A DNA stretch of 64,000 nt from Citrus sinensis. Its lineage: Eukaryota; Streptophyta; Magnoliopsida; Sapindales; Rutaceae. Below, in pieces: positions 28,985 through 56,400 of this stretch (its first letter is position 1; each line of letters opens with the position of its first letter). The stretch is from contig NC_068559.1 of NCBI RefSeq assembly GCF_022201045.2, positions 3,632,501 through 3,696,500 of the forward strand, read 5' to 3'. Position numbers and translations under genes: made by a program. The notes beneath the pieces are model-generated. The model was not told the origin of the DNA. It saw nothing but the letters and a program-made list of their open reading frames with translations, and ran no database searches.

Positions 28985-29372
28985 TAAAATTGAGAATACT
29001 TTTTTTTTCTAATTATAAAATTAAAAATACTCTTTTTTCTTTTAAGATAAACTAAGAATACTTTTAAACGAACAAATACTTCTTATATAAATTAACATAA
29101 TTAAATATATTTAATAAATTAAAATTATAAATAATTTAATTTTTCTTTTAATTCAACCAATTAATATGTAATTAATATGGAGCATTATTTATTTGTAAAA
29201 AAATTGTTTTTCTTTTAATTTAATCTTTTTTTATGGCATCGAATTATTTTAAAATTAGAATTAACAATAAATAAATAGAAAGCAAACGCGACAAACTATT
29301 GCTATCTACTTTAATAATGAATCATTAATTTAGCTAACGGAGAGAGAAGGGAGGTCTTATGGAAAACTCAAA

Positions 29373-30043
29373 TAGGGATGGAAATGGGGTGTGATGGGAG
29401 TGGAGAGTCTTACCTTATTTTCCATCTCATTAAAAATTTCGTCTTCTTCCTCACATCATTCTCAAAAATTTTAGTGGGGTGGGGATGGAGAATCTCTGCA
29501 TGGGGAATGATTTTTCTATTCCTGTCCCATTTCTCATTTACTTATTTTATAGTATGTATAGATATATAATTTCAATAAATTAAAAATTAAAAACTTAAAT
29601 AAATTATCACCATATATATAAAATATTTTAAAAAATCTCTAAAATTTTGAAATAATATCTTAAAAATGATACGAAAACTGAAAAATGATTGAAGAGAAAA
29701 GCACATAAAGAGAGAAAAGAAATGTAATAATATTTTATCGTTGAATAAGAATTATATTGGATGATTTTTTTTTAGTTATAACCCATTTATATTAGGTAAA
29801 AATAAAAAAAAATTATTAACCAACATTGTTATTAATAAAATAAAAATTATTAAACAAAAATTGAAAAAATATTTGTATATAATGGAGATTTGGTAGCAGT
29901 AGGGTGGGAAGTATAAAACTAAACCCACCCCGCTAAGAATTTGGGGTTATTGTTTCCCCATTCCCCAAAATTATTCAAAATCCACCTCATTTTGGGTGGA
30001 CTCCCATGGGGCCCCAAACCCATGAAGAATTTTGTCATCTCTA
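29373..30043. mobile_element. hAT-type MITE, copy in R1
   Basis: 671 bp starting TAGGGATGGAAATGGGG and ending with the inverse complement of TAGAGATGACAAAA, with a degraded 8-bp target duplication (AACTCAAA at 29365-29372, ATCTCAGA at 30044-30051, 6 of 8 match). The terminal 100 bp on each side are rich in GGGGATGG/CCCATTCCCC-type motifs. No transposase. The same insertion at the same place occurs in R2, so it predates that duplication. Confidence 0.75.
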
Positions 30044-30649
30044 ATCTCAGAGCACCCTTTCACGTCTAGTGCTTCTTCTCCAATTGGATAGCCCACTGCC
30101 TGTTGTTGTGCCGTTTTCTCTACCGTTAGCAACAACTGGTAAGTTTTAATTGTTAACTTGTTATACATTTAAGTTATAAGTGGTCCTTTTGAAAAATAAA
30201 AGATAAATTAATGAACAATGTATTTAATATAAACTCTTAATGTGAAATTTCAATATAGTTAAAAGTTATTTTGCAATGTGTTATAATTTTGAAACTTATT
30301 TTATTTTATTATTTTATTTTTTTAGCAAACTTCAGGGAGACAATGATGGGCGAATGAAAGTTTTTTTTTAATAAGTTGATAACGATTAAAGTTATTCACC
30401 ATTCTCCTTTTATTATTTATTTTTATTGTGTGTTTTTTCGATTACTTTACTGTGTGTTTGTTTGGTTGACAGTAATTTAGGTTTAAAGAATAATTAGTTG
30501 AAAATTTTATTCCTAATTCAGATTGGGTGAGAGTATATGAATTCAAAAACCCCTCTTAATACCTATTTACTTATAAAATAATATATATATTTTTCACACA
30601 CATGCATTTGTAACTTGACTTAATGTTGTGCTTAAATTCCATTTTTCAG

Positions 30650-31043
30650 CAACAAGTTGCTACAATAGGAAGCTTGGATCATAATGTTCTTATTTTGGAT
30701 CTAAAACATAATAAGACAATGTTTACGAACATAGGGTATTGCAAGTGTCATTTTCTATGAAATCATTTAAATTTCTTAATTAATCATAAATTGATACTTT
30801 AACAAGTTTTGATATTGTGGGCAGTATGGAGTGACATGTTTGGCTTAAATTGGAAAGTCTGATCAATTTCTAGCTATGCAATCCAAAGATGGGAAGTTAC
30901 AACTTTGGGAGCTCTTAGAGTGTAATGGTCTTCCATGTCTCTAGTGCCATTTCTGACTTATTTGTGTCTTGTGATGAGAATTTCTTGGTAGTTCTATTAA
31001 TGATACCATTCACATGTTTGAGATTGTAAATAAGTTTCTTTGA
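30650..31043 (+). pseudogene. AAMP-like WD40 gene, C-terminal exons (R1 copy)
   Basis: Two exon remnants. The first (30650 to about 30735) reads VATIGSLDHNVLILDL, matching the WD repeat that in plant AAMP-like proteins reads ATGGMDKKLIIWDL. The second (about 30824-31043) starts GVTCLA and contains KDGKLQLWELLE, matching the last repeats of AAMP. The second exon holds several in-frame stops, so this copy is dead. AAMP is a conserved eight-bladed WD40 protein; only repeats near the C-terminus are present here. It lies on the same strand as the middle exons at 33674, but upstream of them, so the gene order is permuted by the duplication. Confidence 0.7.
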
Positions 31044-31428
31044 TCAAGTCGACCTTCAATCAATATTTGAAACCGAATGCATGTATTACTATTTTCACTT
31101 TTTGTTTTATATACTACGATATGTACACAATACATATTTTCAGATATCTCTTTCTTTGTTGTTCCATACGACTCATTAAATTGTGTTTCAATATAAACAC
31201 TATTTCATGGCTCTTATGTATACCATTCTGAATGATCTGAGCCACGACTCCCATAACTTAGACATATCTCAATAGTATATATTACAACATTCCGTTACAG
31301 AAATAATATAAAAGAGTCCATGATTTACATTGAATAAGATCACCAAAAAAATGTACTTTTTAATGATATATAGGTTATATGTTGGGATCTTAAAAGATGA
31401 ATACTTGAGGTGAGGCCAAGTGAACCTG

Positions 31429-31553
31429 TGTGGAAAAAAAAACTAATAATGATATATGACCTAAAAAGATGTTAAATTGAAACAACCAAATGTGGAAAAA
31501 AAAAACTAATAATGATATATGACCTAAAAAGATGTTAAATTGAAACAACCAAA
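31429..31553. repeat. Two-copy 62-bp tandem repeat
   Basis: A unit starting TGTGGAAAAAAAAACTAATA is repeated head to tail at 31429-31490 and 31491-31553 with only a one-base length change in the A run. The corresponding place in R2 (about 37290-37330) carries one copy, so it arose after R1 and R2 separated. Confidence 0.8.
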
Positions 31554-31949
31554 TATGGACAAACTTACTAAAAGGGCTTCTATAGTTGGCTTATAAATAT
31601 ACAACACACAAAAATAAAAACCAAGAATTATTAAAAGAATTATAAACTAAAAAAAATAGGTGGGTTAGTGAGGAAAACGTTTTCTTTGAATCTTTATGCA
31701 ACATAAGCACAACAAGAATCATTGCTTCTGGAGATATAAGCATCCTCGCTTTTTGTAAAGTCTAGTGGCAGTCGATTTTTTTTTTCTAAAAATTTTTTCA
31801 ACCGCCTTGTAACCCTCGTGTATGCCTCTCTACATGATTGAGTCATAACTCCTACAACCTAAACATAACCCAAAGATAGTCTATGTCATGATGTTTCGTT
31901 ACAGAAACACTATACTATAAAGACAATTGATGAAAATCAACAAACAATC

Positions 31950-33080
31950 AGTAATTCACAAAGTAAATTAATGATGTTAAACTGAAACAATCAAACATGA
32001 ATGAACTCACTAAAAAGGTTTTTGTAGTTGGCATATAATATGTAACACACAAAAGTAGAAAATCAAGATTACTAAAAGAATTATAAACTAAACAAACAAT
32101 TAGGTGAGTAACGGTAAACCTTTTCTTTAGATCTTTATGCAATATAAGCGCAACAAGACTCATTACTTTTAAAGATATGAGCTTCCTCGCATCTTTGAAA
32201 GTCTTTGGCGGCAAAGAATAGTTTTTGTTATTGTCTCTCAAAATGTTTCTCTACTGCTCAGAGTCATTATTACCTTCATAGGAATGTTGGCCACCAGAAA
32301 TGTAGTAAAATTTGAAATTTAACCAAACAAGACTATAAATATCTCTATTATTGGCCTAAGATCAAATTCAGTTGATTGCGAACCTCATGTGCTACAATAA
32401 AGAACAAAAAGTAAGTTGCCACATAATGCATTTATAACTAAGAAACTCTAATAGTACAAATTGCTTACCACCTCCCACGCCACATTTCTTTAGGCGCAAG
32501 TAGTATATTATTGGATATGAGATACACACTTTTCATCATGTATTACATAAATCCCATCGATCATATCCTACACAATCATGCCAATTGATAATTAATTTAT
32601 TTAAAGCTATAGTCTTGTAACAACTCTAAAAAAAATTATATTATACTTAGTTTATTAGTCTTCTTTATTCAACAGAGAAGTCATAGTCTTTAAACCTCTT
32701 GAACAGTATGGACTACTTCAGTTTGTTTGGATATAAAAGCCAAATAATTTGCAAAGCTGCAGATGTAGCGCTCCATGAATACTAACAAACTCCTTTTCTC
32801 TACTAGAACCACACGTGAAAATTCCCTTATACGTGGCTCACACATGATAATTTATTCGAATTTGCATAAACTAAACTATTCCATTTCTTTATTTTCATAC
32901 TAAAGTAATGAATAATGTAGTCATAGTTTATTTTCTTCATAATGTGAAGATTTTACATGTTTCAATTAATTTTTTTTTTGGAAATTTCTTCACAGCCACC
33001 TCACGACCCTCATGTACGCCTCTCTGCATGACTGAACCATGACTCCGACAACCCAAACATATCTATGTGATAATATACAT
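31950..33080 (-). pseudogene. IRE1-like kinase gene, minus lineage, copy 1
   Basis: Read leftward, exon remnants appear in kinase order. At 33070-33000 an N-lobe piece reads GSVMQRGVHEGREVAVKKF with the VAVK lysine. At 32890-32680 comes the hinge region with SLLVFMER. At 32567-32466 the segment DMIDGIYVIHDEKCV is followed by a damaged catalytic loop and NNILLAPKEMW. At about 32300-32130 the C-lobe runs from GGQHPYEGN to LHKDLKKR, and at about 32010 the last exon starts with PTTKTFL. These match the kinase part of plant IRE1 (AVKRL, HRDLKPQNVLI, TGGRHPFG, PDPELRPKA). A TAG stop sits just after GGQHPYEGNNDSEQ, and there are further frame breaks. No luminal or membrane part is seen. Confidence 0.7.
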
Positions 33081-33673
33081 CACGACGTTCCATTACAGAA
33101 ACATTATAATAAAAAGACAATTGATGAAAATCAACAAACAATCACTAATTCACAAAATAAATCAATATAAGCATTAATTGGTCTATGCTTTATGCTGAAT
33201 AAGATCACCCAAAAGCATGTATTCTTTAATAGTCTATAGGTCTACATTTTGGTGATCTTAAAAGATAAACACTTGAGGTTGGTTAAAGTGAACTTGTTTA
33301 ATGCACAAGAAAAATTTATCTCAAGGGCAATGAGGCACTATATATCTTTCATTAGAAATTTTGTCAGGATTTTAGATTACAAAATCCATCAAGATTTTAA
33401 AACATGTTGTAATGCACAAACAATTATGCAAGATGTGAAGATAAAACAGCTTGTCTTTGGAGGATTAATGAAGGAAAATTCGGTCATACCTTTCTTGGTA
33501 TGTAGTACATAAAAAAAATATTAATTGCATAATGCTTTGGCTTGAATTGTTTACTCTTCTATTTTTTATGATTATTAGATGTAAATTTTTCTTATTAATT
33601 TCATATTTGTGTTCTTCTAGAATTGAAAATAATAACACATTATTTCATTTGAACTCTTGTTATTTCTCTTCAG

Positions 33674-34040
33674 TCAACTGATTGGAGTTTCTGCTTTGGC
33701 TTTTAATAAAGACGGATCTCTACTTGCTCATGGTGGGTTTAACGGGTATGTCTTCCACTGGAACTCTGCAATTTATGAATTAAAAGGGAAAATTTGGCTT
33801 ATTGGCGGGGACATTGAGGTGAAACTATTTGATTTTTTTAGTGATCAAATTATTCCTTTTATTTTTTTGAACACTAATCATGGCCGTCTCTCAGTGTTAA
33901 GTTGGCACTCAACAAGTCATGTAATATTAGGTGGCTTAGGAGATTGTCGGGCTCACATGCGATACTGCAAGAGAGATTTTTAACATTTTTGTAGGTCATA
34001 GTGGAAGAATGACCTGTGTTGATTTTATGCCTGATGGTAT
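33674..34040 (+). pseudogene. AAMP-like WD40 gene, middle exons (R1 copy)
   Basis: First exon remnant (33674 to about 33795): LIGVSALAFNKDGSLLAHGG then FNGYVFHWNS, matching the AAMP blade that reads VSSLAFSMDGQLLASGGLDG. Second (from about 33892): VLSWHSTSHVILGG followed by GHSGRMTCVDFMPDG, matching WHPRGHIVLAGSED and VTCGDFTPDGK. A frame slip lies between the two halves of the second exon around RYCKRDF. A pseudogene fragment rather than a gene: flanking blades are missing. Confidence 0.72.
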
Positions 34041-34439
34041 TCATAAGTCTATCATATTTTCTACCACTTCTTTTAGGCTTCAACTACATTTGTTTTATTT
34101 ATATATTTTGTAACTTTATATTGACTGTTGTTTGTTTAAAGTAACAAAATTTGTACCAATTACATTGTAAAAACATTACCTACAAAGACAACTAATGAAA
34201 ACAAAAAAATAATAATTAGCAATTCACAAAATAAATCAATAACATATTGAATAATTTTTAAAACTCTAAGGTTTATACTGAATAAGATCAACCAAAAACA
34301 TGTATTCTTTAATGATATATAGGCCTACATTTTGGTGAACTTAAAAGATGAACACTTATGGTGAACCTATGTTAAAAGAAAAAAACAATAATGATATATG
34401 ATCTGAAAAGATATAAAACTAAAATAACCAAATGTGTAC

Positions 34440-34750
34440 AAACTCATTAAAAGGGCTTTTGCAGTTAGCCTACAAATATGCAACACAAAAAAATAGAAAA
34501 TCAACAATTACTAAAAGAATGATAAACTAAAGAAGCAATTAGGTTAGTGAGGGAAAACTTTTTCTTTGGCTCATTATGCAATATAAATGTAACAAGGCTC
34601 ATTACTTTTAGAGATATAATCTTTTACTTCTTTGAAAGTCTCAAGTGGCAGAGAAAGATTTTTGTTGTTGTCCCTTAAAATGTTTCTCTACCACTCAGAA
34701 TCATTATTGTTTTCGTAGGGATGTTGTCCACCAGAAATGTAGTAAAATTA
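34440..34750 (-). pseudogene. IRE1-like exon 4/5 fragment, minus lineage (R1 end)
   Basis: Read leftward: the C-lobe segment beginning GGQHPY (34750-34580) with the same in-frame TAG seen in the other minus-strand copies, then an intron and the start of the last exon near 34460. The upstream kinase exons are absent; R2 begins directly to the right. Confidence 0.6.
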
Positions 34751-35256
34751 AACACAAAAATTTACCATAAGTCTTCAAAACAAAAAAAAATACAAAAATT
34801 CGTGGGAGGGGTCAAACTTTGGGAACTAGAATAAAAATAAACAATAAATTTATATTATTATTAGATAGAATGAAAAATTATATTACTATAAAAAAATAAG
34901 ATTAAAAATAATACTTTTAAATGAACAAATACTTCTTCTATAAATTAACATAATTAAATATAATTTTAATAAATTGAAATTATAAATAATATAATTTATC
35001 TTTTAATTCAACGAATTAATATGCAATTAATATGTAGCATTATTTATTTGTAAAACTTAATTTACTCTTTTTTTGACACCAAATTATTTTAAAATTAGAT
35101 ATTTTTTAAACTAACAAAAAATAAATAGAAAGCAAATGCCACAAATAAAAAATACGCATATCGGATGAAATTGTTATTGCTATCTACTCCAATAAGAAAT
35201 CATTGATTTAACTGACATAGAGAGAAGGGAGGTCCTATTGTTTTTTAGATCCTAGA

Positions 35257-35889
35257 TATGGATGGCTAATACCTCACCTTCTCTACCATTCCCCAATAAA
35301 TTTAGTGTGGTGGAGATGGGAAAATGGATGGGGAATCCTCATGTGGGGAATGATTTCCTCATCCTCCCCTTATTCCCCATTTACTTGTTTTATAGTAAGT
35401 ATAGATACATGATTTTAGTAAATTAAAAATTAAAGATTTAAATAAAATCATTACCATATTATAAAATATTTAAGTTATTTTAAAAAATCTCTAAAATTTT
35501 GAAGCAATATCTTAAAAATGTTACGAAAACTGGAAAATGATTGAAGAGAAAAGCACTTTAACAGAGAAAAGAAAATATAATAATGCTTTAGTGTTGAATA
35601 AGAATTATTTTGGAGAGTTTTCTTTTAATTATAATCCATTTATATTAGGTAAAAAAATTTACTAACCAATATTGTAATTGATAAAATAAAAATTATTAAA
35701 CAAAAAAAAAATATTTGTATATAATGAGGATTGGAGTGGGAGTACAAAGCCAAACCTCACACCGTTAAGAATTTAGGGATTATTGTTTCCCTATTCCCCA
35801 CTCCATTCTCTAAAAATGATTCAAAATTCACCTCATTTGGAGTGGATCCCCATGGGGTCCCAAACCTATAGAGAATTTTACCATCCTTA
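35257..35889. mobile_element. hAT-type MITE, copy in R2
   Basis: 633 bp, the orthologous insertion of the R1 MITE: starts TATGGATGG, ends CCATCCTTA, with degraded target duplication ATCCTAGA (35249-35256) and ATCCCAGG (35890-35897). Interior colinear with the R1 copy, with small indels. Confidence 0.72.
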
Positions 35890-36489
35890 ATCCCAGGGCA
35901 TTCTTCCGAGTCTGGTGCTTCTTTTTCGATCGGGCAGCCCACTACCTGTTGCTGTGCCGTTTTCTCTACCATCAATAGCAATTGGTAAGTTTAATTGTTA
36001 TCTTGTTATACATTTAAGTTATAAGTGGTCCTTCCTAAAAATAAAAGATAAATTAATAAATAGTGTGTTTAATATAAACTTTTAATGTGTAATTTCAATA
36101 TGGTTAAGGTCATTTTGCAATGTGTTATAATTTTAAAACTTATTTTATTTTATTATTTTATTTTTTTAGCAAACTTCAGGGAGATAATGATGGGCGAATG
36201 AAAGCTTTTTTAATATGTTGATAACGATTAAGGTTATTCACCATTATTCTTTTATTATCTATTTTTACTATATGTTTGTTCAGTTACTTTTATTGTGTGT
36301 TTGTTTGGTTGATAGTAATCTAAGTTGAAAAAAAGATTAATAGGGAATTTTATTATTAATTCAGATTGGGTGAGAGTATATGAATTCAGAAATCCCTCTT
36401 AATACCTATTTACTTATAAAATAATACTTTTTTTTTACACACGTGCATTTGTAACTTGACTTAATGTTATGCTTTAATGTTATTTTTCA

Positions 36490-36905
36490 ATAACAAGTTG
36501 CTATAGTAGGAAGCTTGGATCATAATATTCTTATTTTGGATTTGGAACATCAATAAGGCTATGTTTACGAATATAGGGAATGGCAAGTGTCATTTTCTAT
36601 GAAATCGTTTAAATTTCTTAATTAAAAGTGTTGTTTTCTATGAAATCATTTAAATTTCTTAATTAATCATTGTGGGCAGTGAGGAGTGACATGTTTGGCT
36701 TAGATTGTCAAGTCTGATCAATTTCTAGCTATACAATCCAAAGATGGGAAGTTGCAGCTTTGGGAGCTCTCAGAGTGTAATGGCTTTCCTTGTCTCCAGT
36801 GCCATTTCTGACTTATTTGTGTCTTGTGATGAGAATTTCTTCGTATGTAGTTCCATTGATGATACTGGTCACGTGCTTGAGATTGCAAATAAGTTTTTTT
36901 GATCA
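36490..36905 (+). pseudogene. AAMP-like WD40 gene, C-terminal exons (R2 copy)
   Basis: Same two exon remnants as in R1: VGSLDHNILILDLEHQ-like sequence at about 36496-36580 and, from about 36670, GVTCLA followed by KDGKLQLWELSECNG. Several stops interrupt it. A 41-bp tandem duplication (36585-36666) lies in the intron. Best explained as a duplicated dead fragment. Confidence 0.68.
36585..36666. repeat. Two-copy 41-bp tandem repeat
   Basis: A unit containing TTTCTATGAAATC is repeated at 36585-36625 and 36626-36666. R1 has a single unit at the matching place, so this duplication is specific to R2. Confidence 0.75.
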
Positions 36906-37594
36906 AGCGGACCTTCATCAATATTTGAAAAAGAATGTATGCATTACTATTTTCACTTTTCATTTGATATACTACTATATATACACACGATACATATTTT
37001 TGGATAGCTCTTTCTTTATCGTTCCATACGGTTAATTAAATTGTAGTTTGAATATAAACGCTACTTCACGACTCTCATGTTCGCCTTTTTGTACGATATG
37101 AGCCACGACTCCCATGATTCAGACATATCTCAATAATATACGTTACAACATTTTGTTACGGAAATACTATAAAATTCCATACTTTACGTTGAATAAGATC
37201 ACCTAAAAGCATGTATTCCTTAATGATATATAGGTCTATATTTTGGGATCTTAAAAGACAAATACTTGAGGTTGGGTCAAGTGAACAAGTGAGAAAAAAA
37301 TCAATAATGATAAATGACCTGAAAGGATGTTAATTAACAAACAATTAGTAATTCACAAAATAAATTAATAACACAATAACTAGTATTTAAAACTTCATGG
37401 TTTATGCTGAATAATATCACCTAAAATATATATATATTGTTTAATGATATATAAGTCTACATTTTGTTGATCTTAAAACATGAACACTTTAAATTAGGGC
37501 AAGTGAACTTGTGTTAAGTGAATTTGTGTTAAAAGAAAAAATAATGATATTTGACTTGAAAGAATGTTAATCTGAAATAATCAAACGTCGACGA

Positions 37595-38170
37595 ACTCAC
37601 TAAAAGTGTTTTTCTTGTTGGCAAACAAATATGACAATTATTACATAAATTCTCTCGATCATATCCTACACAACCATGCCAATTGACAATTAATTTATTT
37701 AAAGCTACAATTTTGTAACAACTCTAAAAAGAAAAAAATTTAGATTATACTTAGTTTATTATTATTTTTTGATTCAACATAAAAGCCACAAATTTTAAAC
37801 TTCTTGAACATCATGAACTACTTCGGTTTGTTTGGATTTTTCTTAAAAGCTAAATAATTTGCAAGGCTGCCGATGTAGCGCTCCATGAATACTAACAAAC
37901 TCCTTTTCTCTACCAAAACCACACATGAAAGTTCCCCTACATATGACTCACACATGATAACTTATTCGAATTTACATCAACTAACTATTCTAATTTTTTT
38001 TATTTTCATACTAAAATAACGAATAATGTGGTCAGGGCTTATTTTCTTCATAATGTGAAGATTTTACATGTTTCAGTTGATTTTTTTTTTTAGGAAATTC
38101 TTCACAGCCACGTCACTACCCTCGTGTATGCCTCTCTGCATAGAACCACAACTCTCACAACCTAGACATA
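37595..38170 (-). pseudogene. IRE1-like kinase gene, minus lineage, copy 2 (exon 4 missing)
   Basis: Read leftward: N-lobe piece around 38160-38095, hinge exon at about 37990-37790, catalytic-loop exon remnant near 37690-37630 (starting GATATGATCGAGAG), then directly the start of the last exon at about 37620-37595. The C-lobe exon with GGQHPY, present in the other copies, is absent, so an internal deletion has joined two exons. Not functional. Confidence 0.62.
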
Positions 38171-38258
38171 TCTTCGAGATAATATAAATCACAATGTTCC
38201 ATTACAGAAACAATATGATAATTGATGAAAATCAACAAACAATCACTAATTCACAAAA

Positions 38259-39515
38259 GGCTGTTTATGGAGGTTGCAATAGTTTAGTTAATTAAATTAT
38301 TTATCCTTTTTGGTAATATTATATGAGGCTGATTTTGTAATATAAATTTTTATAGCTTCCAAATTATACAAATGCCCCTAACAACTTCATTTACAGCTCC
38401 ATAGTCAATATTGCTCCTCTCATTTTGATTTTGATTCAGTGATTTTTAGCATTTTTTTAGTTGTTAAACTTGTTATAATAGAGATGTATGACTATGATTC
38501 TAGTTGAGTTTGATTTCTCATGTGTATTGTAATGAAAGAGACGCGATTCTATTTCTGTTTGTTTTGGACCTTTTTGCTTTTGGACACCAAGGATTAATTG
38601 ATTTTTACTTGCTTAGAAAGAATGAGATTCATAGATTTGATAATGAATTTATTATGATTTGATTAATACAATACATATTTTAGACTTCTGCATACAGTTG
38701 ATCTAATTTGAATCATAAAAAGCTGATGATCTAGTAATTTTGTCAGTAATTTTTTTTTTATATTTGACACTTTTATTACATATTGATTTCTTACTATAAT
38801 GCATAACTAATATTTTATTGCACAATATTTTGTATTTTTAATTTGAAAAAAGAGTAATGGTAAGAAATTTGTTCATTCACATTTTTTTTTCATTCATTAG
38901 ATATTAACATACTTGTAGGTACGATTAACTTCTATTTCTAAAAAAAATTTGTTTTGAATATAATTTGAAATTTTGGTAAATGTTAATGTTATTTTTGTCC
39001 AATTGAAAGATATAAATGATTCATTCCCATTGATCATTTCATATTTCAACGAAACATTAGAAATATAATCAACCCTCTTTTTCTTCCCTCTTAGTTCCAA
39101 TTTTTCAACCATTTATGATCTCAATTTAAATGAATTTAAGACTTGATGAATGCAGATTATTCATATGCTTTTGAGTATGTTCGAAGGAGTGCTACCATAG
39201 GTGATAGTACAATATTCACTCTTGTTCTCACATAATTATTTATTTATTTATTATTTTTAAAAATTTCATATGGTTCGATTGAAGTTTTATACAATATTTG
39301 TCGCAACGTGCATGAATAAAGTTGATAATTCAATAAATAAGTTTGTTGGCCATTTTGGTAATTATTCTATCGAACATTAATCATTTTTAAACTCATTCAG
39401 ACTTATAGTAGTTATACATAAATTGTTGTTGGAATAATTTATTGAAACACATGCTTTGTCAAAGTTATTCATTTCACCCTCATGTTTTAAAGCCTATCAA
39501 AGCTCTGACTTTTAA
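38259..39515. other. Spacer unique to R2
   Basis: About 1.26 kb of AT-rich sequence with no counterpart in R1. On both sides lie copies of the same roughly 160-bp N-lobe segment (38090-38258 and 39516-39670), which occurs once in R1. No gene, clear terminal repeats or transposase found. It could be DNA caught between two unequal copies of the unit. Confidence 0.5.
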
Positions 39516-40140
39516 CTTTCTAAAAATTTCTTCACAACCGCTTACAACCCTTGTGTACGCCTCTCTGCACGACTGAACCATGACTTCCACAACCTAAACA
39601 TATCTCTGAGATAATATACATCACGACATTCTATTACAAAAATAATATAATAAAAAGAAAATTGATGAAAATCAATATACACATTAATTGGTCTATGCCT
39701 TATGCTGAATAATATCACCAAAAAATGTGTATTCTTTAATAATATATAGGTCTATATTTTGGTGATCCTAAAATATGAACACTTGAGGTTGGGAAAAATG
39801 AACATGTGTAATACATAACATAATTTATCTCAAGGGCAAGGAGACACTATATATTTTTCACTAGAATTTTGTCAGGATTTTAGATCACAAAATTCGTCTA
39901 ACATATTGTAATGCACAAACAGTTACGCAAGAAGTGAAGATAAGTCAGCTTATCTTTGGAGGATTAATGAAGGAAAATTATGTCATAGCTTTCTTGGTAT
40001 GTAGTTGGCTTGAGCTGCTTATTCTTCTATTTTTTATGATTGTGAGCTGTAAAATTTTCTTATTAATTCCATATTTGCGTTCTTCTAGAATAAAAAATAA
40101 TAACACATTATTTCATTTGAACTCTTGTTATTTCTCTTCA

Positions 40141-46240: not shown

Positions 46241-46409
46241 AAGATAATATACATCATGATGTTCAATTATAGAAACATAATAATACAAAGATAATTGATG
46301 AAAATTAATAAACAATCACTAATTCACAAAATAAATAAATATACACATTAGTTGGTCTATGCTTTATGTTGAATAAGATCACCTATAAACATGTACTCTT
46401 TAGTAATAT

Positions 46410-46500
46410 GGGAAATTTACGAAAATAACCATTAATATTTTATTATTTTCGCAATTAATCCTCTCAACTTTTTTCTATCAACATTAGCCAAACACAAGCC
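46410..46500 (+). repeat. Left terminal inverted repeat of the MULE
   Basis: Begins GGGAAATTTACGAAAATAACC and reaches past TTTCTATCAACATTAGCC at about 46473-46490; pairs with 53352-53442. Confidence 0.8.
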
Positions 46501-46811
46501 TTTCTTCCCAAATTACCCTTCTTTACAGAACAAAACCAACATTGTTTCTCCCATATCGCCAAACCAAAAGCAGCTTTTCACTCTTGAATCATCAGCCAAC
46601 GGCGACCGCAAAAGACAACGATAAAAGTGATATCCGATCATAATCTATCCAGATCCAACACAAATCGACATCACTTAGTGGTATGAATTATTTTCTGAAC
46701 TTACTGAACTGAGTCGGGTGACAGGTTGCCTGTCGCACCCACCTGGAGATTCATTAAAACTGTATTATTTTAATATGACTCAAATAAATTTTTTTTATAA
46801 TTTCAGGCTTA

Positions 46812-49444
46812 ATGGATTCAGTTGTACTTGAATTGTGTTACGATGGTTGGTGGGAGACATTAGAGAATGGCCGTATGGAGTACGTGAATAGTAAAAATCG
46901 AGCTTTTTTGGTTGGAAAAAATTATCTGTTTGATCAGTTATTGGCAAGAGTATACGAGGTGTTACAAATAAACCCTAATGACTATAGTATCACAATGAAG
47001 ACAACATTGAGGTCTAGTAACACATTATATCGTATATGTGCAATGCCCATGGATATATGTGACGATGAAATGGTGAGGGTTGTGTTGCATATGGCATCTG
47101 ACGTAGTTAATTTTGGATGCATTCCTATATTCGTGACCACATCACCTTGAGTTCCGAGCGAAGGTATTGAGCCACATGTCGATACAGAAACTTCGTTTAG
47201 AGCAAATATGTCTAGCCCCGATAATGATGAAGAGGTGTTGCCAAGGACAATATCGCTGCAGCAATATTACTCTCCAATCCACGACAATTATGACAACGAT
47301 GATGATAATGGCGTTACGTTACAGGATGTTGGAGCAACGGTATTTTCAATAACGTCGTTGGAGCAACGATATTCTCCGTATTACAACAATGATTTTCGGG
47401 CAATGATGATTTTCATAATGAGACAGAGGGGGATAATGTTTGTGCAGAACCTTCTAATAATACGAGGCGAGGCACTCGTTTCAATAATGATGGTGATGAT
47501 GGAGGAGTCGGTCCTTCGAATGTTCCGTCGTTTCAACATGAGGATGAGTGTGAAGACAATACTCCTGTGAATAACAGAGGCAATAGACCTATTCCTTCTA
47601 TGGTTCGATCGAGAAAGAGAATTGACCCCCTTATAAGTCTTGCTCCAACTTTGCCTTCGAACATGGTTGCTCCAAGCTTTGTTAGCAGTTGTGACTCAGA
47701 TGATATCAGCGTGGGTAAGCTATTTGCTGAGAAAAATGAGCTTATATTACAACTATGCAAGGTGGCCTTTAGAGATAAGTTTGATTTCAAGATTGCACGG
47801 TCTACTACGACACGTTTCGAGGCTCACTGTTGTTCAGAATCATGTAAATGGCGTATTCGAGCAACTAGAAGTTCGAACGAGCAAAATGTTCCTTGGGTGG
47901 TGAAGAGAATTGATAATGTACACACTTGTCATAATGAGGTATTGGTTGATGGACGTCATCAAGTAAGGAGCCGGGTTGTCGGTCATATTATCGCAGAAAA
48001 ATATATTCAAGATAAGAGGATTTATACTCCCAATGACATAAGAGCAGATATGCAACAAGAATACAATGTTCAGTTAACATACCAGCAGGCATATAGGGCG
48101 AGAGAAGTTGGTCTTGAAATAGTTCGCGGCAACCCTGCAGAGTCATACAACTTGCTCCCTAAATATTCTCACGTACTAACTACAACGAATGAGGGTACAA
48201 TCACTCACCTCGAGCAGGATGGAGATGGTAATTTCTTGTACTATTTTGTAGCACTCAGATATTCCATCAAGGGGTTTATGCAGTACATTCGGTCTGTCAT
48301 TGCTGTAGATGGTACTCATCTGAAGGGACTATATCGTGGAAGCATGTTCGTGACAACATGTCTTGATGGTAACAATCAATTGTATCCGTTAGCCATTGGG
48401 ATCATGGATTCAGAAAACAATGATGCTTGGGAATGGTTTATGATGAAGTTACACGCAGTGATTGGTGATAGACCTGAGTTGGTAATTATCCCTGATCGAT
48501 GCACTGCCATAAGGAGAGCCGTTCTTAAAGTATTTCACAATGCAACTCATGGCGTTTGTTTTTACTACGTCAAAGGTAACATTAAGTCACAATTTAGAAT
48601 GTCCAAAGCTCTTTGGGATAAATTTGAGCCTGCCTTTATTAATGCAGCAAAAGCATATGGCCACGAGGAATTTAAGAGACAACTTAAAGGGTTGTGGATG
48701 ATCCACTCGGGTGCGGCTGATTACCTAGAAAATAATGTCGGTACGTGTAATTGGGCAAGGTCTCAGTTTGAAGGTAGGAGGTATAACATTCTTACCACCA
48801 ACATCGCAGAGAGTGTTAATGCTTTCATGAGGGAACCTTAAAAATTTCATGTTACTCATCTTGTTGATCACTTTAGGAAAACATTGCAGCAATGGTTTTA
48901 TGATAGAAAAATTGTGGCTGAATCAATGACTACTCGGCTAACAACATGAGCGAATGAAATAGTCACTGAGAGGAGAACTATAGCTGAAAGAATGATAGTT
49001 CGGCCGGTGTCTCCGCATCACTTTCAAGTTATAGGCGGTGGGCTTAAGGAAGGGTTGGTTGACTTGCAAAAGAGAACTTGCTCCTGCAGAGTGTTTCAGC
49101 TTGATCAGCTTGTGTGTGCTCATGCAATTGCGGCGTGTCTAACACACCGGGTGGATTTTATTAACTTTTGCTCGGACTTTTACACTACAGAATTGTTGGC
49201 GATAGCTTATGCACAACCAGTGGAGTCAGTTGGTGATGTGGCTGATTGGGAAGTTCTAGATGAAATTCAGGAGATGCAAGTATACCCACCAGTTGAGGCA
49301 CCACCACCTGGCCGTCGTAAAGAGCTCAGAATACCCTCGGCTGGCAAGGACATTGACCGGCGGACTGTAAGATGCGGCCGGTGTCATGAACTAGGCCATA
49401 ATCGTAAGCGATGTAAGAATCTTATTGCGTCGACTCGAAGTTAG
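46812..49444 (+). pseudogene. MULE transposase (MuDR type), interrupted
   Basis: Segments in order: an N-terminal domain 46812-47148 (VVLELCYDGWWETLENGRME), an acidic linker to about 47560, the Mutator DNA-binding zinc region at about 47700-47940 (CCSESCKWRIRA, HTCHNE), the catalytic MULE domain at about 48280-48680 (AVDGTHLKG with the first Asp, IIPDR with the second, HEEF as the likely Glu), a SWIM zinc finger at about 49070-49130 (CSCRVFQLDQLVCAHAI) and a CCHC knuckle near 49372-49413 (CGRCHELGHNRKRC). Breaks: TGA at 47148-47150, a frame change near 47400, TAA at 48839-48841 and a TGA near 48947-48949. In the C..H motif after the second Asp the expected His reads Tyr (HGVCFYYVKG). These suggest a recently inactivated copy. 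The product would bind the inverted ends and cut and paste the element. Confidence 0.88.
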
Positions 49445-49655
49445 TTGTATTTTGTGTGTTATTCGTTGGTTAAAACTATTATTGTTTTTGTGTTTCGTTG
49501 GTTAAAACTGTTATTGTTTTTTGTGTATTGTACACTTATATTTCAGAAAACTTTATTTTATTTTAAAGTTCAAAATGTGAGGCATTAAAATTATATAAAC
49601 TTAAGTGCGCAAATTAAAAAAAATCAAATTTCAACATTAAAATTACTACATAGGT

Positions 49656-52600
49656 CTACAATATAATATCGTCATTAAATATATCAACGACAATCTTCTT
49701 TCTAAAGTACTCGACATGACTAGCGTTAAACTCCAATATAAGCCCGAACATTAAATACATCGTAACCATCAATACAAAAACACCGCAATCGCCAGTGCCT
49801 CTTTCTTGTTGCGGCACGCTCTTAACTGCAATAACTTTCCACGGGTCTTCACTCCACAACTCGGGTCGGATATTGTAGAAGCCAACATATTCCAACCATC
49901 GAGGGAATATAACTTCAAGTGGCTTGAATTTCAACTTGTACCTTTTGTCGTCGCGAAATGTGAGTAATGAGTCATAAATCCAAACTTTATTTTTCCGAAA
50001 GTGAACTCGTGCTAGTACCCAATGCGCGCCGTCCAAGTTAACAGGGATAAATAACTGCATATAAAAATTAAAAAACATGTTCGTTATATATGCAATTGAA
50101 ATACAACAAAGAAAAAGCAACAACTCGAATATTTTCATTATAGAGCACGTGAAATGTAATAAAATACATACCATATCGACATCCGTCATTGATTTGGACA
50201 TTGTGTGTTGTCGCCCATAAAGATAACTATTCAAGCGGTCGTCGAATACTAATGAATCGACCGCACAATCCCCGTTGTTCCATAACTGATTCAAGAACAC
50301 CTAGTACATAGATAACCAAGAAATGCATAAATGAACAACACTTAAAGGCAATAATTAAAAATCAAATTAAATAGTATTTATAAGTTTTGTCGGCACGTTA
50401 CCCAAAAAAATGTGTCAGTATGTGTGACACGTTGGAGTAAGGCATTTGGATACTGCCGTTGTTTCTCGCTAATCAAGCGGAGATACTCGTGAATATGCTG
50501 TATAAAAAAAAATATTACAATTTAAAAAAAAATTATACACAAATCCACAACAGAATACACCACGAGGAAAATATAAATCCCTCATCGCCTAGCCATCCCA
50601 TCGAAGATATATTCAAAATTATTTGAAAGAATGACCGCGGGTACTGGACTCTCCGGCGAACTTTGCTATCACCAGTGAACCATTCGATCAAACTCAGCAA
50701 ACAGACTAGAGTCCTCCAATCCTCTCAGTGGATTTACATCCACACTCGTACTCATGTCAATCGCATGCTCCATGATTTGGGGTCGCGATAAAGGCCGGAC
50801 GTTCTGTCCTCGCCTGACCGGAGGAATCATGTAAGGACTGTTATAAACATACGATGGTATGTACGCGCGGCCGAACTTACTAACCCCCGGAGGCGCCTCT
50901 GTGAACACCTGCACGCTCTCCCCACTAACATTCCCGTAGAAACTATACAATGACGTGGGCGTAGACAAATTTTCATTGCCCACGTCAGTATACACTCCAT
51001 AGTCATCCGGGGCCTGTACATTCGCCAAAAAGAACATATTAAATAACTATCAAATTAAAAGTTAAACGAACATAATTATTAAATTTAAATTAGCTTACCG
51101 CATACGAGCGTGCAGTGGGAGAATCCTTATTTGGACGCTTAGAAAATGTGTCGATGAAGCCAACAAAGGTTTCTTTAAAATCTTTTAATTCTGACTTTAT
51201 TTCATACACGTTACGATCAATCTTATCCAGCCGTCGTCGTACGTAATCATTAAACTGTTTTGTCCTCGACTATTACAAAAGGAAAAAATAAATTTAGAAT
51301 AACAATAAAAAAATAATAATTTATAAAGGAAAAATATCATATATTATTTATAACCTCAGAATCCCGTGCGTCATCAGAGTTGTCTGTTTGCTGCTGGTGG
51401 TCATCAACAGCCACCTCATCCTCAAAAGTGTCATGACCCACCTCATCCTCAAAAGTGTCATGATGCTACTCTGGTATTGGGTTTGGTATGTCATCATGAT
51501 CGTCATGCTCGTTTGATTGCCTTGTAACCGACGGCATCGCGTTGATTGAGGGTTGGTGCTGTATAAAGTATCATTTAAAATTAGTAAATGAAAAGTCAAA
51601 AATTTCGATTAACAAATTTTTTGTACTTAGAGTATACCGACCTTATGAACCCAGTCTGGAATGCTTGGCAAGTAATCCTTCACAGAGAGCCAATATTTTC
51701 TGCTACTCTCCTTTGAATTTAGCTCAAGAGTTTGTAAAACGTCCCCCTGCCATAAATTCAATTGAAAATTTTAAGTAAGTATACATTTCTTAAATTTAGT
51801 AAAGTTAAAAAAATAAGTAATACATATTACTTACAAGACGAGATTCGTCGTTGAAGAACGAATAAACCTCCGCAAAGTTGATTCTCGAAGACGCCATGGG
51901 CTTCCATTGCAGAATGCAGGGAATCTTATTCTTCATTTTGACGACCCATGTTGATGGCAACCCTCCGATTGCTTCGTAAATCCAAGCCTACAACAACCAA
52001 AGTGAAAAATCAAATAAAACAACTATCAAATATTTAATACTATAAAACTTATTAATAAACAAAAAAAAAAGCTCCTGAACCCCAGACGTAAAGCCGTAAA
52101 GATTGTATTTTTTAATATTATGATCTGGATTTTTCAACCGAGTCTTCTTAAATTTCTCGTCTTTCTAGAATAGTGCATTGTCAAGACTCTCGTAAATCAT
52201 TTCCCACGACAATAGACCCCATGGATGCTTTCGGAAGTACTGGATATCATCAACTTGGTCAAGCCAATCGAAATTAATTTGACAGTGATTTTTTCTTGCA
52301 TTCAGTACTCTGTCCGCAAAATAAAACAGCGCAATCTTTAATGCGTCCATATCGTCCATTTCCTCGAATTTCAACTCCTTAAATACTGCATCGAATTGCT
52401 TCACATTAATCTTACGATGCACCCCACCAAAATACGTATTCCGTAGCCTCTGCTCCATTTCATCATTTTCTTGATTGGTATCAACACCAAATGAAAGTCC
52501 AGTAACCAAGCACCATTCAACAATTGACAAGCGAATCAAATGCTTACCAATTTGAAACCATAATTGATCCTCACGGCTATCTTCTTCATGGGCCACTTGC

Positions 52601-52833
52601 TGCAGTAAAAGATTGTGCAAAATTACCCCACTAAATGGAAAACTTCGACACTCCAAAAAATGCCCAAATATATCCTTTTTGAACATACTCAACTGCCGCT
52701 TTGTTAATTTTTTCTCGATGGCTTTTACGACCGAAGATAACATACACATGCTCAAAATTCGACCAGGAAAGTGATCAGCATAACGAAAATACATCTTGCC
52801 TACTTCAATATCCGGTGATTCTGATTTCGCCAT
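49656..52833 (-). CDS. DUF1985-Ulp1-like cysteine protease of the MULE
   Basis: A multi-exon transposon-borne gene. The first exon (52833 to about 52080) encodes a DUF1985 domain (LSIVEWCLVTGLSFG, HPWGLLSWEMIYESL) and contains an in-frame TAG at about 52163-52165, after which the domain continues (YNLYGFTSG). The next exon (about 51988-51837) continues it: AWIYEAIGGLPSTWVVKMKN. Then come charged linker exons, one with a 27-bp tandem repeat (51412-51465), and a proline-rich exon (51017-50669). The last exons (50300-49656, intron at about 50054-50171) form the C48 protease: His in GAHWVLA, Asp in VWIYDSL, Cys in GTGDCGVF, so the catalytic triad is present. Such genes occur only in Ulp1-bearing MULEs and related plant transposons; their job in transposition is unknown. 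SUMO or ubiquitin-like deconjugation is family inference. The stop makes it probably non-functional. Confidence 0.85.
51412..51465. repeat. Two-copy 27-bp tandem repeat in the MULE protease gene
   Basis: The unit CACCTCATCCTCAAAAGTGT... is present at 51412-51438 and 51439-51465, in frame (nine codons, HDTFEDEV on the minus strand), so it lengthens an acidic linker without a frame change. Confidence 0.8.
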
Positions 52834-53351
52834 GTATCTGTAATATTTATAAAATTATTACATTACATTTACAGAAAAAAAATTGACTCGTTAAAAAAAA
52901 CTCTAATTTTTGGTGCAACAGCGCCTGCTGTCACACCAAATATGGTGCGACAGCAAGCCGTGCATGGGCGCACGCTGCTGCCTAGCGATGGACGCGCGCG
53001 CGCCCTGCGCCCCTCCCTCCCCACCCCCAAAATTAAGCGCAATCACTCCAAAATCGAAAACAATACTCCCAAACACCACCAACCACCACAAACATCATCA
53101 CCACCACTATTATTCTCAAGCTATAACTATTATTATTCTAAAATCTCATTTTAAATTAATGAAAATAAGAAAAATAACTAACCTAGGTTTTGTTGAAGGT
53201 TGTAGATCGTAGATCGGATGTCGGTGAGAGATGGAGCCGCCGCCGACGAGGGTTGATGTCGTCGCCTATGATGGGAGTTGGATCGGTTTGGGAGAGATGA
53301 GTGAAAAAGAGTGTTAGGGGAGAGATGAGGGAGGGGTATTTTGGTCTCAAA

Positions 53352-53442
53352 TGTTGTTTTATGGCTAATGTTGATAGAAATATTTTTGGGGGGTTAAGAT
53401 GAAAAAAAGCAAAAATTTTTTGGTTATTACTGTAAATTTTCC
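53352..53442 (-). repeat. Right terminal inverted repeat of the MULE
   Basis: Inverse complement of the left end with mismatches and small gaps; GGCTAATGTTGATAGAAA near 53364-53381 pairs with TTTCTATCAACATTAGCC on the left. Confidence 0.8.
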
Positions 53443-53863
53443 TAGTAATATAGGTCTACATTTTAGTGATCCTAAATGATGAACACTTGAGGTTGGGCTG
53501 AGTGAACCTGTGTAATGCACAAACAGAATTTATCTCAAGGGCAATAAGGCATTATATATCTTTCACTAGAATTTTTGCAGGATTTAAGATCACAAAATCC
53601 GTCTAACATATTGTAATGTACAAACAGTTATGCAAGAAGTGAAGATAGATCAGCTTGTCTTTGGAAGATTAATAAAGGAAAATTATGTCATAGTTTTCTT
53701 GGTATATAGTACATATAAAAGATATTAATTGCATAATAATTTGGCTTGAGCTGTTTACTCTTCCATTTTTTTATGATTGTTAGCTGTAAATTTTTCTTAT
53801 TAATTCCATATTTGTTAGCTGCATAATATTTTTTTCATTTGAACTTTTTTAATTTCTCTTTAG

Positions 53864-55170
53864 GTCAGCTGAATGGAGTTTTTGCTTTGGCTTTTAGTAA
53901 AGGTGGATCTCTACTTGCTCACAGTGGGTTTGACGGGTCTGTCTTCTACTGGGACTCTGTAATTTTTTAATTAAAAAGGAAAATTTAGCTTATCAATGGG
54001 GACATTGAGGTGAAACTATTTGATTTCTTTTTTAGTGATCAAGTTATTCTCTTTTATTTTTTTTAAACACTTATAACTAAACATATGGTTTTCTCTCAGT
54101 ATTAAGTTGGCACTCAACAAGCCATGTAATATTAGGTGGTCAAGAGATTGTATGGCTTACACATATGATACTGCAGGAAAGGTTTAATTTTAACATTTTT
54201 GTAGGTTATAGCAGTAGAATGACATGTGGTGATTTTACGCCTGATAGTATTCATAAATCTATCATTTTCTTCTACCTCGTTTTTTAGGCTTCAACTATAT
54301 TTGTTTTATTTATATATTTTGTAATTTTATATTGACTGTTGTTTGTTTAAGGTAACGCAATTTGTGCATGTTCTGATGATACATCATTAAGGATTTTGAA
54401 TTTTGGAAGCATGAAAGAAAGAAAGGTCAAAAAAGGTATAATTATAGATTTTGATTTGCAATTTCTCTATTTGTTTTCCCTAAGTCACTGAAGTTGAGAT
54501 TTGAACTCAAAGAAATGAGTGGATAAGGAATTTTAAAATTCGAAATTAAATATATGATGGTTGCTTTTAATTAATTCTCAAGCTTTTTCACCTTCTTCTC
54601 TTTTCCCAATCTTTTTAAACATCGTCATTATATTTTTCTTATATCTTGAGTAATTAAAAGTTCCCAAAATTATAATTTGGCCTTTAGAATATGCATAAAT
54701 ATTGTCTTGGTTTACCTTCTCCTTAACTACTATGCTTAGTGTTTGCATTTAAAATAATTAGAATTTTAAAAAGTTCGAATTTATTCCAATAAAGCTAGTA
54801 TCTTCTCATTTTATAGAATATGGTGGCTTTTTTTAGAGGCAAGAGGCAGCACATGTCATGTTTGTCACCTTTCTTTTATTCAACATATCTTTATAACTAG
54901 AGTGTACCAAACTGTCTTGCTTGATTGTTTTATAGTTCAAGTTTTGAAGACTAGATCTACAATAGGATTAGTTGCTTTATGTTTTAATTAAAGATTACAT
55001 TAGTAGTTGTTTACTTTGTGTCATCTATTTATTTATGTTATGCTTTTTCTATAAGAAGTCGATATCATGGAGCGGGTTTGATATGCTTGACCACAACCTC
55101 GGATTCAACCCTTACACTTACTAGTTCTAAAGATGGTTCTGTCTATGTCATTAGATTACCAGATGGAGAG
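53864..55170 (+). pseudogene. AAMP-like WD40 gene, four exon remnants (R3 copy)
   Basis: The longest AAMP-like run. Exon remnants: about 53864-53968 (GVFALAFSKGGSLLAHSG, DGSVFYWDSVIF), about 54100-54245 (LSWHSTSHVILGG with a slip, then SRMTCGDFTPD), about 54352-54438 (NAICACSDDTSLRILNFGS, matching ICTGSDDATLRIWNP) and about 55058-55168 (YHGAGLICLTTTSDSTL, SSKDGSVYVIRLPDGE, matching YHTEGLTCL and GSKDGSVHIVN). The order and intron positions agree with an AAMP-like gene, so this was once spliced genomic DNA, not a retrocopy. Stops and a slip in exon 2 make it a pseudogene. The C-terminal exons do not follow; other sequence and a Copia fossil take their place. Confidence 0.75.
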
Positions 55171-55174
55171 GTTA

Positions 55175-56135
55175 GACTTTATTTAGTTTCAATAAAACTT
55201 TTCTAATCTATATTGTTATTTATTCTATTTCTATGTTGTTAATGTTTCTTAGAGTGGGTAACTTAGTTCACTTGACTCTCGTAATTTTGCTTTATATAAG
55301 CCTTTTACAAGTTGATCATTTAAGTTATAGCCTGAACAAGCACTTTTAAATTATGGTAAAGAATAATAATTCTAAATAAGATTGGATAAGTTCATTTTGT
55401 TTGTTGAATCAAATCCCAGTCCATCCTTTTAACTTGTGTAAAGATATTAAATTTTTCACATGCTAAATTTCATTACATTTTTCTAAGAAAATTCATTTTT
55501 CTGTTCTTGTTTAAAGATATTTACCAAGTTGACATTACTCCTAGGCATCGTAGTTGACACAGTATGGAAAGATAAAAGATTGTATGTTTTTATTGATTGA
55601 TATTTCTTGTTTGGGATAGGGTTTCCACAAAATGATGTTTGATGGCACGCTTGTCTCAGCACATGTAGGGACATGTTCAGATATGGATGATCAATTTTTT
55701 TTTATTCCATGTACCCTACTAATGCCACTCAAAGCATAAATGCAGACTAACTAGTTCTTTTTGAGAGGTTGACATAATATGGGAAGATAAAAGATTGTAT
55801 GTTTTTATTGACTGATATTTCTTGTTTGGGATAGTGTTTCCACAAAATGATGTTTGATGGCATGCTTGTCTCAGCACATGTAGGGACATGTTCAGATATG
55901 GATGGTCAATTTTTTTTTTATTCCATGCACCATAACAATGCCACTCAAAGCATAAATGCAGACTAACTAGTTCTTTTTGAGAGGTTGATGTGTAGGTTTT
56001 TGACCTTTTATCCTTTGTTTGCACGTAAAAGTTTCAACCAATTGGCTTAGTCCCTTGCACCAAATGGTGACAATTGTTGACTTTTGCTTTATCTTTAATT
56101 TTTGTTTAGTTATTGAGGGTGATTAATTGTTCTAC
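55175..56135. other. Intron-like and spacer DNA with a tandem duplication
   Basis: No gene. AT-rich sequence following the last AAMP-like exon remnant, containing the 215-bp tandem duplication listed separately. Confidence 0.5.
55549..55985. repeat. Two-copy 215-bp tandem duplication
   Basis: The block containing GATAAAAGATTGTATG and CTCAGCACATGTAGGGACAT is repeated head to tail, at about 55549-55763 and 55764-55985, offset 215 bp, with few mismatches. Confidence 0.85.
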
Positions 56136-56400
56136 TAGGGGTGGCAATACTACCTGTAAACCCACAAATCCGCCTAAATCCGCCCGTTACAAGTAATTTT
56201 GTAGGTTGCAGGCAGATATGGTATCATAAATTAAAACCCACATCAAGTTGCGGGTGAGTTTGGTATATGTCAAATATTCGATGGATACCTGTATAGATGT
56301 CCACTAACCTACACTTTTTAGGTATTTTTAAAATTTTAATTAAAAATATTTAAACTTAAAAAATATAAAGTGAATAAATGTAAATGTTCATTTACATTTA
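56136..56400. mobile_element. Truncated hAT-type MITE
   Basis: Left end TAGGGGTGGCAATAC followed by motif-rich sequence (CCCACAAATCCGCC, GTTGCGGGTGAG), like the hAT elements nearby. A right end with matching target duplication is not seen; near 56405 the sequence resumes as the array spacer (GTCTACATTTTGGTGG), so the element is cut or decayed on the right. Confidence 0.5.

What the first reader, a model, noticed from the sequence alone, without database searches (positions are those of the whole stretch)
28985..56400. Array of interleaved AAMP-like WD40 and IRE1-like kinase/RNase fragments
Over about 20 kb (without the MULE), exon remnants of two unrelated conserved genes alternate: AAMP-like (always +) and IRE1-like (two lineages, opposite strands). 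AAMP C-terminal exons come before the middle exons in R1 and R2, so unit boundaries cut through the WD40 gene, as expected from unequal crossing-over in an array that once held fuller copies. I know of no described locus pairing these genes. Whether any transcript is made is unknown; the visible damage argues against working proteins.
Basis: partly seen in the sequence, partly recalled or inferred. Interest (0 to 1): 0.72.

Follow-up and report, generated by a model that had tools for sequence, protein, structure and literature searches.

The report
Decayed AAMP and IRE1-like gene cluster
A stretch of a plant chromosome holds a worn-out local cluster of repeated pieces of two ordinary genes, one for a WD40 protein and one for a stress-sensor kinase; it is real and neatly layered, but it looks like ordinary gene duplication followed by decay.

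Summary
Self-comparison shows alternating AAMP-like exons (+ strand) and IRE1-like pieces on both strands at 28649-46409 and 53443-56467, split by a MULE (46410-53442). Identities hold: IRE1 chains fill the first 16 PDB rows; C9 AAMP is the best match outside the array for the WD40 part.

One inference is corrected. If units start at the short repeat M before the first AAMP exon, AAMP exons run N to C in each unit; boundaries need not cut the WD40 gene.

Apart from short dispersed repeats, five DNA queries matched only this locus and, for 77 bases, the mitochondrial contig. That 77-base piece of a mitochondrial group II intron interrupts the N-lobe exon in all three minus-strand IRE1 copies that hold it, not in the plus copies: the minus lineage was broken before it was amplified. 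The plus copies lost key kinase and RNase residues and are stopped or frameshifted at the kinase/RNase junction; their duplication shows no purifying selection. Silencing of parent genes is unlikely. This is birth-and-death decay with an unusual pair of partners.

The parts
28649..28773 (+). unit 1: remnant of AAMP-like first exon region (A)
   Evidence: 74% to its reference at 39813-40010
29043..31080 (+). unit 1: AAMP-like C-terminal part (exon F about 30641-30760, exon G about 30800-31080) with a dispersed MITE-like element at 29373-30043
31211..31431 (.). IRE1(-) first-exon tip plus boundary repeat M
31558..33302 (-). unit 1: IRE1-like minus lineage, a truncated copy (31558-31932) and a fuller one (32004-33126; mitochondrial insert at about 32805-32873), then M 33180-33302
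33313..34145 (+). unit 2: AAMP-like exons A, B, C
34265..34838 (-). M plus IRE1(-) C-lobe piece between AAMP exon C and the C-terminal part of unit 2; a short dispersed repeat begins at 34761
34897..36937 (+). unit 2: AAMP-like C-terminal part with the same MITE-like element (about 35287-35885)
37061..38258 (-). unit 2: exon-1 tip, two M repeats, then IRE1(-) middle and N-lobe exons (mitochondrial insert at about 37913-37983)
38259..39516 (.). insertion between units 2 and 3; about its first 100 bases are a dispersed repeat
39517..40625 (+). unit 3: IRE1 exon-1 tip (39517-39667), M (39690-39812), AAMP-like exons A, B, C
40749..41315 (-). M plus IRE1(-) C-lobe
41407..42826 (+). IRE1-like plus copy A: kinase exons 41416-41756, 41855-41991, 42072-42345, then 42429-42826 (frameshift near 42460; KEN part open from 42533 in another frame)
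42857..43348 (-). M plus IRE1(-) C-lobe
43516..44800 (+). IRE1-like plus copy B: TAG in exon 2, TGA at kinase/KEN junction, internal deletion of KEN at about 44736
44831..46409 (-). M, then the most complete IRE1(-) copy (44990-46300; mitochondrial insert 45979-46055), then M up to the MULE
46410..53442 (.). MULE inserted in an M repeat; TAGTAATAT on both sides
53443..55180 (+). unit 4: rest of M, AAMP-like exons A, B, C, D, E
56396..56467 (+). last repeat M, right edge of array, next to a dispersed element at about 56128-56394

Best explanation
A local, decaying gene-duplication cluster. An AAMP-like gene (+) and a 5'-truncated, sensor-less IRE1-like gene (-), both copied as DNA with introns, came to lie side by side. 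A 77-base piece of mitochondrial DNA broke the N-lobe exon of the minus IRE1 lineage. The pair was then amplified in tandem in place and rearranged (IRE1 C-lobe pieces between AAMP exons). A separate IRE1 lineage on the + strand, without the mitochondrial piece, stayed in frame longer and was duplicated late, together with a minus C-lobe, into copies A and B; both are now broken. A MITE-like element entered before units 1 and 2 were copied; the MULE entered after the M repeats had formed. Shown: homology, order, strands, relative divergence, lesions, the shared mitochondrial insert. Inferred: unequal exchange as the driver, the order of the first steps, and that nothing here works as a protein today.
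For: IRE1 identity: first 16 of 60 shown PDB rows, E 4.5e-20 to 5.3e-18, next 1.7e-11; best place outside the array is the C5 IRE1. AAMP identity: best two places outside the array are C9 AAMP exons, 1.8e-6 and 4.7e-6, next 2.3e-3; exon-by-exon matches. Locus-specific: 35 of 35 matches of 39500-42850 lie in this locus; outside it the other queries matched only short dispersed repeats and the 77 mitochondrial bases. Mitochondrial insert in 3 of 3 minus copies that hold the exon, in 0 of 2 plus copies; donor contig C10 shows sdh3-like and nad2-like frames and a group II intron. MITE-like element at the same place in units 1 and 2, 38 other copies found. K80: AAMP N part 0.121-0.139, plus A/B 0.044, late C-lobe copies 0.022-0.041. 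dN/dS A/B 0.55, neutral simulation median 0.62, P 0.35.
Against: The kinase part of copy A is open from an ATG to the kinase/KEN junction with GT-AG introns. The plus lineage kept its frame although it is far from the minus lineage: neutral change of 0.10, 0.18 and 0.36 per site left 750 bases stop-free in 12%, 2.2% and 0.3% of simulated copies, so it was probably coding for part of its branch; its true branch length is unknown. No transcript data or related genomes were available.
Confidence: 0.87

Rival explanations
1. The plus-strand IRE1-like copy A is a living gene for a sensor-less kinase-like protein of about 280 residues, with the rest of the cluster as debris.
For: Copy A is open from ATG 41416 through three exons with GT-AG junctions; the plus lineage kept its frame over a long branch and escaped the mitochondrial insert.
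Against: Copy A has a frameshift near 42460 compared with copy B, so the KEN part is out of frame; copy B has TAG in exon 2 and TGA at the junction. By eye the DFG Asp, HRD Arg, catalytic Lys, alpha-C Glu and activation loop of the C5/C7 IRE1 genes are lost or changed. dN/dS is not below the neutral simulation.
Confidence: 0.08
2. The inverted IRE1(+)/(-) copies act as a hairpin or antisense source of small RNAs.
For: Five inverted pairs that I chose form predicted duplexes of -218 to -271 kcal/mol with uninterrupted helices of 25-34 pairs (G-U included); means of 10 mononucleotide shuffles of one strand are -65 to -83.
Against: Expected from any inverted repeat of about 72% identity. Exact matches of the array to two IRE1 and two AAMP loci reach 20 bases only in simple A/T-rich runs and 16 otherwise, as in two control loci flanking the window, 19 and 16, so the parents are unlikely targets. 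No Rfam match in the window at gathering level.
Confidence: 0.06
3. A transposon (Helitron or Pack-MULE) captured AAMP and IRE1 fragments and carried them here.
For: A MULE and dispersed elements lie in the array; gene-fragment mosaics are typical of such elements (recalled).
Against: No second copy of the mosaic was found; the MULE splits an M repeat and so came later; I saw no ends bounding the mosaic, though I made no special search for Helitron ends.
Confidence: 0.04

Closest known systems
Arabidopsis IRE1C (AT3G11870), PMC6788458 and PMC6883098 (passages seen)
   Same: IRE1 paralogue without the lumenal sensor domain, thought to have arisen by (partial) gene duplication; more diverged than IRE1A/B.
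   Different: IRE1C keeps transmembrane, kinase and RNase domains and is needed in gametogenesis; here key residues are lost, the kinase/RNase junction is broken and no membrane part was found. Both papers place IRE1C in Brassicaceae, so this lineage is probably independent (no tree made).
AAMP (angio-associated migratory cell protein) WD40 gene, here at C9:30355566-30358046
   Same: Same exon order, intron sequence similarity in places, 32-51% identity in the main exon matches.
   Different: Array copies lack exons, carry stops and are split by IRE1 pieces.
Tandem gene clusters under birth-and-death evolution with pseudogenes (recalled)
   Same: In-place copies of mixed age, partial and inverted copies, transposon insertions.
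   Different: Two unrelated gene families are amplified together and interleaved.
Nuclear insertions of mitochondrial DNA (recalled kind)
   Same: 77-base piece, 91% like the mitochondrial contig, inside an exon.
   Different: It was copied on with the array and so marks one lineage.

Membership tests
IRE1 (kinase/endoribonuclease) | IRE1-type kinase domain sequence | tested here: met
   first 16 PDB rows IRE1
IRE1 (kinase/endoribonuclease) | KEN RNase domain (PF06479) | tested here: inconclusive
   E 0.027, 15 bits, below cut-off 23.3; not listed for the composite; out of frame in copy A, partly deleted in copy B
IRE1 (kinase/endoribonuclease) | lumenal sensor and transmembrane segment | tested here: not met
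   ORFs of the C5 and C7 IRE1 loci hit the array at E <= 0.01 only by kinase and KEN parts; three other hits lay outside the array repeats
IRE1 (kinase/endoribonuclease) | catalytic residues (HRD, DFG/DMG, RNase Arg-Asn-His; RNase residues recalled) | tested here: not met
   by eye: HGDIR for HRDLK, TSFG for SDMG, LEIDN for RVIRN; Asn and His kept
AAMP | closest WD40 gene in the genome is AAMP, exon order shared | tested here: met
   AAMP itself named from a recalled plant sequence used as query
AAMP | complete WD40 propeller | tested here: not met
   no unit holds all exons; stops and frame changes
MULE transposon (46410-53442) | transposase domain, terminal repeats, target duplication | tested here: met
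   ends only partly alike
Transposon-captured gene mosaic | dispersed copies with element ends | tested here: not met
   no second copy of the mosaic

The most novel reading that the evidence does not exclude
The plus-strand IRE1-like lineage was, and perhaps still is, a lineage-specific sensor-less IRE1 pseudokinase, independent of Brassicaceae IRE1C, that evolved beside an AAMP-like gene and was amplified with it; copy A may still be expressed as a kinase-like protein acting on the ordinary IRE1s.
Probability: 0.08. Interest if true: 0.55.

Novelty: new member of a known kind. Interest (0 to 1): 0.27.

Why it matters
It is a well-layered example of how two unrelated plant genes can be trapped in one local amplification and decay together, with a mitochondrial insert, a MITE-like element and a MULE as time marks. 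The shared insert shows that an already broken gene was still being multiplied. The IRE1 side suggests that sensor-less IRE1 copies arise more than once in plants. For annotation, gene callers may well report IRE1-like and WD40 genes here.

Tried and rejected
Small-RNA regulation of parent genes: unlikely for lack of matches. Rfam in the window: none at gathering level. Transposon carrier: no second copy. Selection on the latest duplication: not different from neutral. Exons differ more than introns (plus A vs minus R4 241 of 801 against 68 of 321; A vs B 45 of 906 against 12 of 426); I could not tell selection from composition, mutation bias or gap placement and make no claim; the mitochondrial insert also disturbs these alignments. 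In the R1 N and R2 N comparisons of that call most coding columns were gaps. One search used a wrong frame for exon 3 (redone); one search misplaced one exon end (redone). One search listed only the longest match per locus, so one search was run to separate simple repeats. at loose E-values gave many chance rows that I left out. The origin of repeat M was not found. Whether the C5 AAMP copy or the C9 AAMP is intact was not established: 2 of 3 C5 and 2 of 6 C9 matches hold stops, but introns are read through. No plant collection was available, so sister species could not be searched.
Full report
Setting. The window is C4:3632501-3696500 of a 299.7-Mb genome with nine large contigs and two small ones, C10 of 632,500 and C11 of 132,500 bases. 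A plant with nine chromosomes of this size would fit Citrus; this is my inference and was not tested. C10 looks mitochondrial: frames like succinate dehydrogenase cytochrome b556 and NADH dehydrogenase subunit 2/NuoN and a group II intron in the 9.5 kb read.

Observation. BLAST of the window against itself gives long direct and inverted matches from 28649 to 46409 and again from 53443. With 20 reference pieces I mapped the order on the + strand. Unit 1: AAMP exon A remnant (28649), C-terminal AAMP part (29043-31080), IRE1 exon-1 tip and repeat M, a truncated and a fuller IRE1(-) copy, M. Unit 2: AAMP A, B, C (33313-34145), M and IRE1(-) C-lobe, C-terminal AAMP part (34897-36937), exon-1 tip, M, M, N half of IRE1(-) (to 38258), then a 1.26-kb insertion. 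Unit 3: exon-1 tip, M, AAMP A, B, C (to 40625), M and C-lobe(-), IRE1(+) copy A, M and C-lobe(-), IRE1(+) copy B, M and the most complete IRE1(-) copy (44990-46300), M. A MULE (46410-53442, between two copies of TAGTAATAT) splits this M. Unit 4: AAMP A to E (53522-55180), last M at 56396-56467.

If units begin at the M before AAMP exon A, exons run in order in each unit; no unit is complete, together they cover A to G. IRE1(-) C-lobe pieces follow AAMP exon C in units 2 and 3 at a similar breakpoint. Both drawings fit a tandem array; mine needs fewer cuts.

Identity. The IRE1-like composite finds IRE1 in the first 16 PDB rows (60 shown of 671). In this genome 20 places were listed, 16 in the array by construction; outside are the C5 IRE1 (9.3e-7), two other kinases (1.9e-4, 3.9e-4) and the C7 IRE1 (4.3e-4). 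The KEN part alone is weak (E 0.027, below cut-off). Of 16 places for the AAMP-like composite, 12 are in the array by construction; outside are two C9 AAMP exons (1.8e-6, 4.7e-6) and two other places (2.3e-3, 7.1e-3). PDB and Pfam searches of that composite give only general WD40 matches. C9 AAMP matches the array exon by exon at 32-51% in the main matches, with short intron similarity.

Mitochondrial insert. Window 45979-46055 matches C10:611320-611396 at 91% over 77 bases. The same piece lies in the other two minus copies that hold the N-lobe exon, 37913-37983 and 32805-32873 (77% each), and BLAST finds it nowhere else in the window. An alignment shows it as an insertion against both plus copies. 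It overlaps a group II intron match on C10 (L070:4859-4921), next to a nad2-like frame. So the minus lineage had a broken kinase exon before it was amplified; the plus lineage did not share this lesion.

State of the IRE1-like genes. Plus copies A and B have three kinase exons with GT-AG junctions; by eye the e1/e2 and e3/e4 introns lie where the C5 and C7 IRE1 frames break. Compared by eye with those genes, HRDLKPQN is HGDIRPNN, SDMG is TSFG, the activation loop is missing, the alpha-C Glu is lost and RVIRN of the RNase part is LEIDN. Copy A goes out of frame in a T run near 42460; copy B has TAG in e2, TGA at the kinase/KEN junction and a KEN deletion. ORFs of both IRE1 loci hit the array at E <= 0.01 only by kinase and KEN parts; three further hits lay outside the array repeats, one of them in the MULE. 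No KEN match was found in minus copies.

Age and selection. K80: AAMP N part 0.121-0.139 among three copies; C-terminal AAMP part 0.147; shared MITE-like element 0.220; minus exon-1/middle part 0.148-0.219; older C-lobe copies 0.134-0.250; late C-lobe copies 0.022-0.041; plus A/B 0.044; plus vs minus 0.342-0.435. In e1-e3, A and B differ at 38 of 750 bases; dN/dS is 0.55, neutral simulation median 0.62 (P 0.35), 0.97 stops expected and 1 seen: no sign of selection since the split. Before it, the plus lineage was probably coding for part of its branch: 12%, 2.2% and 0.3% of simulated copies stayed stop-free at 0.10, 0.18 and 0.36 changes per site. Differences by codon position, plus A vs minus R4, were 73/268, 75/266, 93/267 (Fisher P 0.041); eight other plus/minus comparisons, two of them parts of R4, and the A/B comparison were not significant.

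Confinement. All 35 matches of 39500-42850 lie in this locus. For 29340-31500, outside matches fall only in the MITE-like element: 38 other copies, 40 of 443 candidates scored. For 31500-34840, 4 of 20 matches lie outside, all at 34760-34840, a short dispersed repeat. For 53453-56467, 37 of 40 listed lie outside, all within about 56128-56394 (40 of 270 candidates scored). For 44750-46400, 5 of 27 lie outside: the mitochondrial piece and four at about 45320-45451, the same short repeat. Stretches 34841-38254 and 42851-44749 were not used as queries but are homologous to ones that were. The insertion 38255-39520 has six short outside matches.

RNA. Five chosen inverted pairs give longest helices of 25-34. 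Exact matches to the four parent loci reach 20 bases in simple A/T-rich runs and 16 otherwise; two control loci give 19 and 16. No Rfam hit in the window.

Literature. Two AtIRE1C papers (passages seen) describe a sensor-less IRE1 in Brassicaceae. Searches for AAMP with IRE1 (12 of 66 and 10 of 12 listed), IRE1 and Citrus (15 of 95 and 10 of 29 listed) and tandem pseudogene arrays of gene pairs (8 of 16 listed) showed nothing on this pairing in the listings; no other paper was opened. (Citrus assemblies) was not used further.

Verdict. Real and locus-specific, best read as a decaying tandem cluster of two duplicated genes, part of which was amplified after it had been broken.

Noticed in passing
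window 45979-46055, 37913-37983, 32805-32873: 77-base mitochondrial group II intron piece inserted in an IRE1-like exon and copied with the array.
   Followed up: yes
window 46410-53442: MULE with a transposase reading broken into two ORFs, SWIM zinc finger, and on the other strand Ulp1-protease and DUF1985 ORFs.
   Followed up: partly
window 29373-30043 and 35287-35885: Dispersed MITE-like element, at least 38 other copies in the genome.
   Followed up: partly
window 56128-56394: Another dispersed element at the right edge, 37 other places listed.
   Followed up: no
window 34761-34913 and 45320-45451: Short dispersed repeat next to the IRE1 C-lobe pieces, also on C1, C2, C3, C4 and C9.
   Followed up: partly
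window 38259-39516: Insertion of unknown origin between units 2 and 3; only about its first 100 bases are repeated elsewhere (six places).
   Followed up: partly
L047 (G000:C5:35257000-35262500): Second AAMP copy, 73-84% like the C9 gene in DNA, with similar spacing; whether intact is not known.
   Followed up: partly
array, 11 places, e.g. 39690-39812: Boundary repeat M of about 120 bases at most joints of the array; not found elsewhere in the genome; origin unknown.
   Followed up: partly
window 24895-24996: GC-rich tandem repeat of a 43-base unit, 2.3 copies.
   Followed up: no
window 56846-57109, minus strand: Translation with a YVDD motif, looks like a copia reverse transcriptase remnant (motif recalled).
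   Followed up: no
window 41407-42826 against 44990-46300: Exons differ more than introns between IRE1 lineages (30% against 21%); cause not resolved.
   Followed up: partly
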